DNA of 64,000 bases from contig NZ_CP129235.1 in NCBI RefSeq assembly GCF_030413635.1, forward strand, positions 992,001-1,056,000, written 5' to 3'. Positions within the stretch are counted from its first letter, which is position 1. Each line of letters starts with the position of its first letter. This document shows, piece after piece, positions 3,501 to 49,464 of this stretch. The translations under genes and the position numbers were made by a program. The stretch comes from Planococcus shenhongbingii. Its GTDB lineage: Bacteria; Bacillota; Bacilli; Bacillales_A; Planococcaceae. Under the pieces are notes generated by a model. It saw nothing but the letters and a program-made list of their open reading frames with translations, did not search any database and was not told where the DNA came from.

Positions 3501-3505
3501 AATCA

Positions 3506-3540
3506 AAACCGTCCGTTGCCACTAAGCAACGGACGGTTTT
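3506..3540. terminator. Terminator of the gntP-bdh operon (left copy of a duplicated hairpin)
   Basis: The arms CCGTCCGTTGC and GCAACGGACGG form a perfect stem followed by TTTT, 8 nt after the dehydrogenase stop. A near copy (30 of 35 bases) occurs at 4372-4406, on the far side of the repeat element. Confidence 0.85.
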
Positions 3541-3610
3541 AAGCTTGTTGAGAAAGTTTAAATTAGTATCAGTGATTACTTCTTAACCGATATTCCGCCA
3601 ACCAGCTGCG

Positions 3611-3644
3611 AAGACATTGGCCGAGGATTGTGAGGCCAAGTCTT
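3611..3644. repeat. Hairpin module 1 of repeat copy 1
   Basis: AAGAC-A-TTGGCC pairs with GGCCAA-GTCTT around an 11-nt loop, giving 11 base pairs with one bulged A. It is followed by TGCGACGAAGC and a GGAGCATATGTTTT tail shared with the other modules. Confidence 0.7.
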
Positions 3645-3735
3645 TGCGACGAAGCGCGCAGCGCTGCAGGAGCATATGTTTTAGCCGCGGGCGAGCGCCA
3701 AGCCGCTTCGTCGCTTACGCTCCTGTTTCTGTCTC

Positions 3736-3846
3736 TGCATCGCTGCGCTAGCTTCGAGACATGGAAAAGCGTTGCATCGCTGCGCTAGCTTCGAGACATG
3801 GAAAAGCGTTGCATCGCTGCGCTAGCTTCGAAACATGAAAGGGCGT
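3736..3846. repeat. Three tandem 37-bp repeats
   Basis: Units at 3736-3772, 3773-3809 and 3810-3846. The first two are identical and the third differs at a few positions. Each unit begins TGCATCGCTGCGCTAGCTTC. The inverted copy of the element has no such array, so this looks like local expansion within copy 1. There are no spacers, so it is not a CRISPR array. Confidence 0.85.
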
Positions 3847-3889
3847 TGCAGGGTCTCGGCTGTCTCGTCGCTTACGCTGCCCCGCAGGC

Positions 3890-3923
3890 AAGACATTGGC
3901 CGACGCCTGCGAGGCCAAGTCTT
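3890..3923. repeat. Hairpin module 2 of repeat copy 1
   Basis: The same AAGAC-A-TTGGCC / GGCCAA-GTCTT stem as module 1 with a different 11-nt loop (GACGCCTGCGA). It is followed again by TTGCGACGA and a GGAGCAGTATGTTTT tail, so it is a direct repeat of the first module inside the element. Confidence 0.7.
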
Positions 3924-4371
3924 TGCGACGAGCTTGCGCAGGAGCAGTATGTTTTCCTCCGCTGGTTGGCTCCATATCTGGTGAGCAGGAACAAATAAGA
4001 GAAGGGTTTCTCAAAAAATCACACTTTTATAGAGTCTCTAAAAGTGATAAAAGAGAGCAGAATGCAGCGGAAGGCGGCGAAGGGCAAAGATGTGCTCCTG
4101 CAGCGCCAGGCGCTTCGTCGCAAAGGCACCACCCAACTACGGTTGGCTGATGCCTTTCCTGCGGGAGCAGCGAAGCGAGGCGAGTCCTGAGACCCCGCAG
4201 GGAATGAAAGGGCAAAAGCAGTTTGCCCCCTTCATTTGCGACGAAGCTAGCGCAGCGATGCAGGAGCACGAGGTTTTCGCCAGCGAGCGAGGAGGCTTAG
4301 GCCGCCCCCCGCGAAAAGCGTCCGCCGTGGAGCGAAATGAAACGGCGGCTGAGAGTTTCACAACAGCCTGA

Positions 4372-4406
4372 AACCCGTCCGTTGCCAAGAAGCATTGGAC
4401 GGTTTT
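4372..4406. terminator. Duplicated terminator hairpin right of the repeat element
   Basis: Matches 30 of 35 bases of the 3506-3540 terminator. The stem keeps pairing with one G-T wobble and one mismatch. It ends 3 nt before the last codon of the minus-strand coat-F-like gene, so it probably terminates that gene on the minus strand. Its T-rich right side would also work on the plus strand. Confidence 0.65.
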
Positions 4407-17286: not shown

Positions 17287-17670
17287 GATTTTGCAAGGTA
17301 ACATTCACTTATTTTTGACTCAATTTTTCATCCCGTTTAATCGGGGGAATCATTTCCATTGAAAAGTATTTCTTTCAGTGCCGCGGTCATAGTTCCACTG
17401 GGTGCTTTCTAACTTAAGCAACGTAAACCCTACCTTCTTTTACGTCCTTGCGATCCTTAAATCGCGCCAGTGTGAATAAGTATTCTCAAAAACATTAATT
17501 GTAGAATGCCAGATTATCAAAATATATCAGTTACCTCGTTGTTAACTGGAATAGTATCTCATGTTTTCAGGAATTGGTCAATCTATTTGTTTGGCCGTTT
17601 TTTAATTTAATGAAATTTGCCTATTAGGGTATAATAAAAAAAACAATGTTAGTGGAAGAAGGAGATTCAT
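17287..17670 (+). other. Gene-free region before pncB with several inverted repeats
   Basis: No coding sequence of merit. It holds short hairpins: CCCG/CGGG at 17334-17347, ACGTAAA/TTTACGT (17424-17449), GCGAT/ATCGC just after it, and a clean CAGTTA-N9-TAACTG at 17528-17548. TATAAT at 17630-17635 is the likely -10 of pncB; its -35 is poor. The inverted repeats may be operators or a structured remnant. I match them to no known riboswitch. Confidence 0.4.
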
Positions 17671-24486: not shown

Positions 24487-24535
24487 TTTTGAGTGGTCTA
24501 CCTTGTACAATTGAGAAAATTAAAGTTACAGGTGC

Positions 24536-24694
24536 CCTCATATATGTCTGGTAATATGGACCAGATGTCTCTACCAAGTCCCCGGAAATGACTTGACTAT
24601 GAAGGTGGATGACGCATGCCTCGACATGTGCATTCGCCTTTTTGATGTAGAGCCAAAAGAACGCGAGGAGTATTTTCGCGTTCTTTTGTTTTTT
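24536..24694 (+). promoter_or_regulatory. Guanine riboswitch controlling guaA
   Basis: The purine aptamer at 24536-24605 has P1 (CCTCATA/TATGAAGG, one bulge), P2 (TCTGGT/ACCAGA) and P3 (AAGTC/GACTT) with the conserved CTCTACC joining strand. The GACTATG at its 3' side has C at the specificity position (74 in xpt), so guanine or hypoxanthine is the ligand. The expression platform is a strong terminator, AAAAGAACGCGA / TCGCGTTCTTTT (24655-24687) plus a T run, so guanine stops guaA transcription. Confidence 0.93.
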
Positions 24695-26403: not shown

Positions 26404-26426
26404 ACGATAGAAATTAAATAACGTTG

Positions 26427-26588
26427 TCGTATAATGTCGGGGATATGGCCCGAAAGTTTCTACCGAGTTACCGTAAATGACTCGACTACGATTTTTGTCC
26501 GCTTCCCAGAAGCAGGACTATTTTCAGAGTTTTTGCTTTGAAAGGATAAATCGAGCGCATACGGCATAAAGCTGTATGCGTTTTTTAT
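26427..26588 (+). promoter_or_regulatory. Guanine riboswitch controlling pbuG
   Basis: The aptamer at 26427-26491 has P1 TCGTA/TACGA, P2 GTCGGG/CCCGA, the conserved TTTCTACC joining strand and P3 CGAGT/ACTCG. GACTACG at the 3' side indicates a C at the guanine-specifying position. The terminator CGCATACGGC / GCTGTATGCG with a T run (26556-26586) is the expression platform and ends 40 nt before the start codon. Confidence 0.92.
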
Positions 26589-28693: not shown

Positions 28694-33388
<4,695 letters not shown>

Positions 33389-33442
33389 AAACTGTTTGTT
33401 TCAACTGTCGCATATCCGGTTTTGAGGGCGCAAGCACTCATG

Positions 33443-33558
33443 TCCAGTGATGATGGCAAAGAGGCCACACCCGTTCCCATCCCGAACACGGCAGTTAAGC
33501 TCTTTTGCGCCGATGGTAGTTGGGGGTTTCCCCCTGCGAGAGTAGGACATTGCTGGGC
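33443..33558 (+). rRNA. rrf: 5S ribosomal RNA
   Basis: 116 nt with CACACCCGTTCCCATCCCGA and the 3' part GAGAGTAGGACATTGCTGGG. The ends TCCAGTGATG and CATTGCTGGG pair as helix I. It completes a 16S-23S-5S operon. Confidence 0.96.
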
Positions 33559-35085: not shown

Positions 35086-35114
35086 TTGACTAGGTAACAG
35101 TATCTTGTTATGAT
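35086..35114 (+). promoter_or_regulatory. Promoter of the purine operon
   Basis: TTGACT and TATGAT spaced 17 nt apart, between the PurR operator and the riboswitch. Confidence 0.75.
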
Positions 35115-35125
35115 GATTGAGGATA

Positions 35126-35325
35126 CCCCATATATGCAGGAGAATTGGCTTCTGCGTTTCTACCAAGACACCGGAATGTCTGGACTATGCGGGAAAGCAA
35201 CTTATGGATACGTGGCGAAAAATGTGCTTGTTTAAGGCATCATTTAATTTCGTCTTATTAAAAAGTCCTTAAGTAAACTGCTTTTCACGTAATGTGAGCA
35301 GTTTACTTGAGGGCTTTTATTTGTT
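35126..35325 (+). promoter_or_regulatory. Guanine riboswitch controlling the pur operon
   Basis: The aptamer at 35126-35193 has P1 CCCCATA/TATGCGGG (one bulge), P2 GCAGGA/CTTCTGC, the conserved TTTCTACC strand, P3 AGACA/TGTCT, and GGACTATG with the guanine-specifying C. The terminator AAAAGTCCTTAAGTAAACTG and its complement (35261-35318), with a T-rich tail, is the expression platform. Guanine would stop the whole operon. Confidence 0.93.
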
Positions 35326-48225: not shown

Positions 48226-48816
48226 ATGAATTGGTACGAAAAATTAAATCAGTATTTCCCAGTAGAAGAAATGAAATCAAAAGAACATATGGATACTTTG
48301 CTGAAAGAAAAAGGCAATGTTTACCGTAAAGACGAAGGTCCATACCATGTATTGATGTACGCAGAGTTTGATAACTTTTCTTTTGTTGATTATTTATTTG
48401 TTTCAAAAGAATCGCGGGGCATGGGTCTCGGAAAAAAATCACTGCAAATGCTGAAAGACAAAAACAAGCCGATTATCCTTGAAGTGGAACCGGTAAATTA
48501 TGAAGATACAGATACTGAAAAACGCCTCCGCTTTTATGCTCGTGAAGGATTCGAGCATGCGTCATCGATCGGCTATTGCCGCCGGTCGCTTGCAACTGGC
48601 GAAGAAAACTCAATGGAGATCTTGTATTGGGCTCCAAACGGGGAAACTGAAGAAGAAATTTTTGAAGCAATGAAGAAAATGTATAAAGACATTCATACGT
48701 ATAAAGACGTCCATTTTTATGGAGAATCTTATGATTCGGTTTCAAAGGTTTTGACTTTTGAAGAAGAAACCAAAGAAGATGTATTGGAACCTTTCACGAA
48801 TACAATTTCAAATTAA
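48226..48816 (+). CDS. GNAT family N-acetyltransferase
   Basis: A 196-residue protein with the acetyl-CoA loop SKESRGMGLGKKSLQMLKDK near residues 63-82 and LRFYAREGFEHA near 103. It has a longer, acidic C-terminal part (about 130-196) with no match I recognise. AAAGGGG lies about 9 nt before the ATG. It stands alone between the purine operon terminator and the inverted repeat element. The acceptor is unknown. Confidence 0.85.
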   Translation: MNWYEKLNQYFPVEEMKSKEHMDTLLKEKGNVYRKDEGPYHVLMYAEFDNFSFVDYLFVSKESRGMGLGKKSLQMLKDKNKPIILEVEPVNYEDTDTEKRLRFYAREGFEHASSIGYCRRSLATGEENSMEILYWAPNGETEEEIFEAMKKMYKDIHTYKDVHFYGESYDSVSKVLTFEEETKEDVLEPFTNTISN

Positions 48817-48819
48817 AAC

Positions 48820-48848
48820 AAAGTCCACGCGGCAAGCGTGGACTTTTT
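48820..48848 (+). terminator. Terminator after the GNAT gene, split or duplicated by the repeat element
   Basis: AAGTCCACGC pairs with GCGTGGACTT, then TTT. The last 15 bases are repeated exactly at 49450-49464, beyond the element. Confidence 0.85.
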
Positions 48849-49223
48849 CATGCTGTAGAGAAACCCTCGATAGCCTTTTCTCATTTCGCTCCAGGTGGGA
48901 CGCTTTCCGCGGACATGGCTTCAGTCTCCTCGTCGCTTCGCTCCTGTGGGGCCTTCAGCTCATGTTATTTCCGCAGGAAGCGAAGCGTGCAAAAGCACTT
49001 TTGCATGGTTCGTTTGCGACGAAGCTAGCGCAGCGATGCAGGAGCACATGTTTGCCCTTCGCCCACCTTCCGCTGCATTCAGCTCTCTTTTGTCACCTTT
49101 AGAGACTCTCTAAAAGTGTCACTGTTTGAGTAAGCTTTCTTTTATTGTTTCCTGCTCTCCAGATATGGAGCCAACCGGCGGAGAAAACCGTACTGCTCCT
49201 GCAGCGTTACACGCTTCGTCGCA

Positions 49224-49257
49224 AAGACTTAGCCTCGCAGGCTTCGGCTAATGTCTT
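49224..49257. repeat. Hairpin module in repeat copy 2, with compensatory change
   Basis: AAGAC-TTAGCC pairs with GGCTAA-T-GTCTT. Compared with the other three modules (TTGGCC/GGCCAA) one base pair has changed on both sides, so the stem is kept. Confidence 0.7.
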
Positions 49258-49345
49258 GCCTGCGGGGCAGCGCAGCGACGAAGCGGCTTGGCGCTCGCCC
49301 GCGGCTGAAAACATATGCTCTTGCAGCGCTGCGCGCTTCGTCGCA

Positions 49346-49379
49346 AAGACTTGGCCTCACAATCCTCGGCCAATGTCTT
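49346..49379. repeat. Second hairpin module in repeat copy 2
   Basis: AAGAC-TTGGCC pairs with GGCCAA-T-GTCTT. It is identical, reversed, to the first module of copy 1, including its loop. Confidence 0.7.
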
Positions 49380-49449
49380 CGCAGCTGGTTGGCGGAATAT
49401 CGGTTAAGGGATAACACTAATATAAATTTTATCTTGCTCAACAAGCTGA

Positions 49450-49464
49450 AAGCGTGGACTTTTT
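49450..49464. repeat. 15-bp direct repeat flanking the element (right copy)
   Basis: AAGCGTGGACTTTTT is identical to 48834-48848. It consists of the 3' arm of the split terminator plus its T tract. It looks like a target-site duplication. Confidence 0.75.

What the first reader, a model, noticed from the sequence alone, without database searches (positions are those of the whole stretch)
3541..4371. Pair of inverted, non-coding repeat elements with terminal inverted repeats, each embedded at a transcription terminator
3541-4371 and the reverse complement of 48849-49449 are homologous: nearly identical over 3587-3714 against 49405-49275, with further conserved blocks. Both are GC-rich islands in a mid-GC genome and lack genes. 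Their ends (AGCTTGTTGAG..., and CTGTnGnGAAAC reversed) form imperfect terminal inverted repeats. Each starts right after the T tract of an intrinsic terminator, with terminator sequence repeated at the far side. This resembles a non-autonomous mobile element that targets terminators, or a dispersed structured RNA. I recall GC-rich repeats with GCTTTCCGCGG-like phrases from other Bacillales, but know of no described function.
Basis: partly seen in the sequence, partly recalled or inferred. Interest (0 to 1): 0.8.

Follow-up and report, generated by a model that had tools for sequence, protein, structure and literature searches.

The report
Mobile elements that duplicate transcription terminators
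The two repeats are copies of a mobile DNA element, without genes of its own, that inserts at the stop signals at the ends of genes and leaves a copy of the stop signal on each side, so that neighbouring genes are probably little disturbed.

Summary
The repeat is real and genome-wide: at least 40 places in the 4.0-Mb chromosome. It is best read as a non-autonomous (MITE-like) element of the IS1182 transposon family. (1) Each locus has its own intrinsic terminator, and the hairpin is duplicated on both sides of the element: for 18 of 31 copies with both ends, the match between left and right flank beats all 930 mismatched pairings. At the two window loci, 24 of 29 and 27 of 29 relatives examined show no second terminator copy; the closest lack the element. 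(2) Two related genomes hold IS1182-family insertion sequences whose two unequal ends equal the element's two ends; a third shares one end. The first 149 bp of two of these ISs match the element's right end. (3) In a sister IS1182 clade, 77 of 87 usable copies lie between flush hairpin duplications that usually end exactly at the outermost base pair. Most likely the transposase attacks both feet of an extruded hairpin (inferred). No transposase of this family was found in the window genome. A structured-RNA role is not supported. Hairpin targeting is known for IS1182 and hairpin duplication for IS1630; this clade-wide outcome and its MITEs look like a new variant.

The parts
3541..4370 (+). 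element copy 1 (non-autonomous IS1182-type element)
   Evidence: homologous places in the genome; ends
3541..3558 (+). left terminal repeat of copy 1 (matches the right end of the partner IS in G036 and G022)
4353..4370 (-). right terminal repeat of copy 1 (matches the left end of the partner IS)
3505..3540 (.). left copy of the duplicated terminator
   Evidence: 31 of 36 equal to 4371-4406; predicted terminator
4371..4406 (.). right copy of the duplicated terminator
   Evidence: one terminator and no element in G013 and G007
48849..49448 (-). element copy 2
48815..48848 (.). full terminator hairpin at the right side of copy 2
   Evidence: one terminator in relatives
49450..49464 (.). remaining half of the duplicated terminator at the left side of copy 2
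   Evidence: 15 of 15 equal to the right copy

Best explanation
A non-autonomous (MITE-like) element of the IS1182 family. A transposase supplied in trans by an IS1182 relative binds the two terminal repeats and inserts the element at a DNA hairpin, usually an intrinsic terminator. Target choice follows the hairpin rather than a base sequence. Joining occurs at the two feet of the hairpin on opposite strands, and gap repair copies the whole hairpin, so the target-site duplication is the terminator itself and is as long as the hairpin. Each neighbouring gene therefore keeps a terminator. SHOWN by sequence: repeat family, ends, duplication, empty sites, homology to the IS end, location at 3' ends of genes. 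INFERRED: extruded hairpin as substrate, order of cuts, mobilisation in trans, near-neutrality for the host.
For: At least 40 places. Left and right flanks match at 18 of 31 copies above every one of 930 mismatched pairs and at 25 of 31 above their 99% point. Relatives at both window loci: 24 of 29 and 27 of 29 without a second terminator copy; 5 of 29 and 2 of 29 with another insert between two copies. Partner IS1182-type ISs in G001, G036, G022 with equal ends; first 149 bp homologous to the right end of elements in 31-32 of 40 loci; G001 and G022 ISs lie between identical terminator copies. Sister clade: 77 of 87 flush duplications. 31 of 31 copies outside ORFs, none between divergent genes.
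Against: 9 of 40 copies lack one or both recognisable ends, and 6 of the 31 others show no flank match above the 99% control point. The G036 IS has different hairpins on its two sides. No IS1182-type transposase was found in the window genome itself, so mobilisation there is not shown. The GC-rich block is absent from the G022 IS. No transposition was observed.
Confidence: 0.9

Rival explanations
1. A dispersed structured RNA (regulator or sRNA) bounded by its own terminators and spread by recombination.
For: Both copies fold better than shuffles (z -6.5 and -6.8); a block near the right end is strongly conserved.
Against: The terminators differ from locus to locus and are single in most relatives. 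Consensus fold of the right end: 5 pairs, no compensatory change. No Rfam family. No promoter-like site. Strong folding is expected of nested inverted repeats.
Confidence: 0.04
2. A non-autonomous element of the IS30 family, like IS1630 of Mycoplasma fermentans, which duplicates inverted repeats.
For: Same outcome at the target, by the title of Calcutt et al. 1999 seen in the reference list of PMC3317919 and that paper's 16-26-bp duplications.
Against: Both ends match IS1182-family ISs of the same genus, including 149 bp at one end. I did not search the genomes for IS30 transposases.
Confidence: 0.02
3. The element entered beside terminators by another route, and the second terminator copy arose later by local duplication or gene conversion.
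For: Some terminator pairs differ (for example 31 of 36 in copy 1), and some copies show no duplication.
Against: The same flush hairpin duplication is found at 76 distinct hairpins around autonomous ISs of the sister clade, 72 of 77 pairs being identical, and independent inserts in relatives have identical terminators on both sides.
Confidence: 0.04

Closest known systems
IS1272 and TnSha1 (IS1182 family, staphylococci; PMC5678879, PMC4923244)
   Same: IS1182-family transposase; target is a hairpin of any sequence, often a terminator
   Different: The papers report replacement or deletion of the stem-loop and no target duplication; here the hairpin is duplicated. Whole-hairpin duplication is drawn there only as a possible pathway.
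IS1630 (IS30 family, Mycoplasma fermentans)
   Different: Other transposase family; paper itself not held
Prokaryotic MITEs in general (review PMC10969869, passages only)
   Same: Short non-coding element with terminal inverted repeats and target duplication, intergenic
   Different: The review describes them as typically under 500 bp and AT-rich; these are about 240-1020 bp by my ends and the two window copies are GC-richer than the window
Group IIC introns (recalled: they insert after terminators)
   Same: Location beside terminators
   Different: No intron match in Rfam over the window; target duplication and IS1182-type ends do not fit

Membership tests
Non-autonomous (MITE-like) derivative of an IS1182-family IS | Terminal repeats equal to those of an IS1182-family IS | tested here: met
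   Left IS end CAGGCTGTCGAGAAAC and right IS end CAGCTTGTTGAGAAA (G036, G022) equal the element's two ends; the right end of the G001 IS is a variant
Non-autonomous (MITE-like) derivative of an IS1182-family IS | Sequence inside the ends shared with the IS | tested here: met
   First 149 bp of the G001 and G036 ISs, about 78-84% identity in the hits shown, hits in 31 and 32 of 40 loci; the G022 IS lacks this block
Non-autonomous (MITE-like) derivative of an IS1182-family IS | No transposase gene of its own | tested here: met
   No Pfam match in seven ORFs of the two window copies; no PF13751 or NF033551 match in the genome
Non-autonomous (MITE-like) derivative of an IS1182-family IS | Target-site duplication like that of the IS | tested here: met
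   not at the G036 IS
Non-autonomous (MITE-like) derivative of an IS1182-family IS | Moved in trans by the IS transposase | not testable with these tools
   needs a transposition assay
IS1272-like stem-loop replacement | Target hairpin lost at insertion, no duplication | tested here: not met
   The hairpin is present on both sides at most copies
IS30 family (IS1630-like) | Ends shared with an IS30-family IS | not tested
   No search for IS30 transposases was made
Structured RNA family | Compensatory base changes | tested here: not met
   Right end only, 25 sequences, 5 pairs, none compensatory
Structured RNA family | Discrete transcript | not testable with these tools
   no RNA-seq here

The most novel reading that the evidence does not exclude
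In one clade of IS1182 and its non-autonomous relatives the transposase reads DNA shape: it attacks the two feet of an extruded hairpin, so the length of the target duplication is set by the target's own structure and not by a fixed stagger. By duplicating terminators the elements insert almost without cost, and they can stack at one terminator and give rows of terminator copies.
Probability: 0.6. Interest if true: 0.72.

Novelty: new variant of a known kind. Interest (0 to 1): 0.58.

Why it matters
It explains this family of GC-rich intergenic repeats and probably related ones in the genus. It gives a clean natural data set (76 distinct hairpins duplicated flush) for a pathway that Wan et al. 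drew only as a possibility for the IS1182 family. Within one genus, different IS1182 clades appear to duplicate the hairpin, enter its loop, or replace it, so their transposases could be compared to ask what decides the outcome. It also shows a plausible way for selfish DNA to spread with little harm: insert at a terminator and leave one on each side.

Tried and rejected
IS1182 clades of the genus with other ends (GGGGCTGTCCC, GGCCACTGAAAAAC, GAATCAATTTCATAA) were looked at first as partners and set aside because their ends differ. The 450-aa clade (CAGACTGTAGACAAACTC) has related ends and the same target outcome but is not the closest match; a decayed copy in G009 (L084) led to the closer clade. 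A structured RNA was tested and not supported; the consensus fold used only the right 170 bp of 23 copies plus 2 ISs, and part of that alignment is poor. Simple end searches were superseded. Literature: nine of ten searches used; in the rows listed I saw no paper on an IS1182-type MITE or on whole-terminator duplication by IS1182, but the library lacks most subscription journals and ISfinder. I recall, from no call, that tables give palindromic duplications of up to about 60 bp for IS1182, so part of this may be on record. Papers seen: PMC5678879 (abstract, three named sections, the discussion in its first part), PMC4923244 (passages and first part of the discussion), PMC3317919, PMC12056078, PMC10969869 and PMC3711429 (passages only).

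Full report
OBSERVATION. The two window stretches are homologous in opposite orientation (92.7% over 179 bp, 84.5% over 277 bp), carry no recognisable gene (seven ORFs without Pfam match) and are GC-richer than the window (55.7% and 53.1% against 45.0%). The window is part of a single-contig 3,979,504-bp chromosome. I fetched all 40 with 3-kb flanks.

THE TERMINATOR IS THE TARGET DUPLICATION. With the copies in one orientation, many lie between two copies of the same intrinsic terminator, a different one at each locus. Of 40 copies, 31 have both ends recognised (at most 5 of 18 mismatches); 9 were set aside. Flank pairs of the same copy were compared with 930 pairs from different copies: control mean 6.9, 99% point 12.5, maximum 18.2. 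Of 31 true pairs, 18 exceed the maximum and 25 the 99% point; 6 do not. The 18 clear duplications are 27-38 bp long and cover stem and loop, in most cases with A and T tracts. L066 has 31 of 31 equal positions and L043 29 of 29; others have diverged. All 31 copies lie outside ORFs of my simple ORF call: 19 between convergent genes, 12 in tandem, none between divergent genes.

EMPTY SITES. The gene left of copy 1 matched in 45 of 46 genus genomes, window genome included (some of these matches are short or paralogous), and the gene beside copy 2 in 46 of 46. Thirty loci of each were fetched, 29 of them relatives. Closest at locus 1 are G013 and G007 (82% and 81% over the query): one terminator, then the same downstream sequence as in the window genome, no element. 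Counted by script over all fetched loci, with a threshold of my choosing: at locus 1, 24 of 29 relatives have no second copy of their terminator and 5 have one (L216, L218, L222, L229, L232); at locus 2, 27 of 29 have none and 2 have one (L249, L252). In the five that I read (L216, L218, L222, L229, L249) a different insert lies between the two copies; copies are identical or one base apart in the first four. So the same terminators have been entered more than once by different elements. The script scores the half copy left of window copy 2 below its threshold (L240).

PARTNER TRANSPOSON. In the window genome no match was found to the IS1182 models PF13751 and NF033551 or to the partner fragment. 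For NF033551, 20 of 46 genus genomes have a match, 6 over the cut-off. A decayed copy in G009 led to a clade found in G001, G036 and G022. Its left end, CAGGCTGTCGAGAAAC, equals the element's right end; its right end in G036 and G022, CAGCTTGTTGAGAAA, equals the element's left end; in G001 that end is a variant. The first 149 bp of the G001 and G036 ISs match the element's right end (about 78-84% identity in the hits shown) in 31 and 32 of 40 loci, 32 of 36 and 34 of 38 hits in the expected orientation. The G022 IS lacks this GC-rich block, so the block is optional in the IS. The ISs of G001 and G022 lie between identical terminator copies; the G036 copy has different hairpins on its two sides.

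THE RULE IN A WIDER CLADE. Of 98 loci examined, 87 had both ends (11 set aside). Of these, 77 have a flush duplication, 72 of the 77 identical, at 76 distinct hairpins of 19-52 bp (median 26.5). The highest of 1039 mismatched flank pairs scored 14.3, below the 16 required. The outermost pair of the fold sits at the first base of the duplication in 62 of 76 and at the last in 61 of 76. Mean folding energy is -15.1 against -1.9 kcal/mol for a neighbouring flank stretch, and 67 of 76 have a T or A tract beside them. The duplication is therefore measured by the hairpin. Two elements of the window genome (L044, L069) combine this clade's left end with the element's right end, between similar hairpins (flank scores 15.4 and 16.0, above the 99% control point but not above the maximum).

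OTHER OUTCOMES IN THE SAME FAMILY. Four of four loci of another clade (L073-L076) have the two arms of a hairpin on the two sides of the IS, as if it had entered the loop. Of five loci of a third clade (L071, L072, L091, L092, L099), two have inverted arms at the junction and none a clear duplication. Three loci of a fourth clade show neither. These readings lack empty-site proof. The first two fit pathways that Wan et al. drew (PMC5678879, discussion).

DISTRIBUTION. The right end with at most one mismatch occurs at 344 sites against 8 for the reversed control in 46 genus genomes, with at least one site in 39 of 46. In the other 215 genomes of the sample 21 have a site: 26 sites against 14 for the control by my count of the table. 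Parts of the element match in 46 of 46 genus genomes (11 candidates scored per genome), often as separate modules.

RNA OR DNA. Both copies fold better than 20 shuffles each (z -6.5 and -6.8), as expected of nested inverted repeats. The right end has a strongly conserved block, but its consensus fold has 5 pairs without compensatory change. No Rfam family and no promoter-like site. I read the block as DNA kept for transposition or for expression of the IS (inference).

MECHANISM. Shown: hairpin target, whole-hairpin duplication, empty sites, shared ends. Inferred: the hairpin is extruded, the transposase joins the element's 3' ends to the two 5' feet on opposite strands, and repair copies the hairpin on both sides. 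This is pathway b of Wan et al., drawn there beside the replacement that they propose for IS1272. Since each side keeps a terminator, insertion should be nearly harmless; not tested.

KNOWN AND NEW. Known: hairpin and terminator targeting in the IS1182 family, duplication of inverted repeats by IS1630, frameshifted IS1182 genes. New as far as the listings show: whole-hairpin duplication as the rule in an IS1182 clade, and a large non-coding element family that shares it. Hence 'new variant of a known kind'.

Noticed in passing
L272, L283, L273 (position 2061 on the transposase strand): The partner transposase is split into two ORFs at a slippery A AAA AAG heptamer, in the right phase and at the same position in all three ISs: a likely programmed -1 frameshift. 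A frameshifted IS1182-type cluster is already mentioned in PMC3711429 (one passage).
   Followed up: partly
L073-L076; L071, L072, L091, L092, L099: Other IS1182 clades of the genus seem to enter the loop of a hairpin (4 of 4 loci) or perhaps to replace the hairpin (A and T tracts at the junctions), without a clear duplication.
   Followed up: partly
L272, right of the IS: Directly after the right terminator copy another element with a similar end (CAGGCTGTCGAGAAAG) begins: elements appear to stack at one terminator.
   Followed up: no
L216, L218, L222, L229, L249: Other insert families lie between duplicated terminators at the two orthologous loci; some share GC-rich phrases with the window element.
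   Followed up: partly
window 3735-3850: A 37-bp unit is repeated nearly three times in tandem inside copy 1, so the inside of the element varies in length.
   Followed up: no
window 24518-24619, 26407-26508, 35108-35207, 17408-17495, 28696-33558: Three purine riboswitches, a BsrC sRNA match and an rRNA operon.
   Followed up: no
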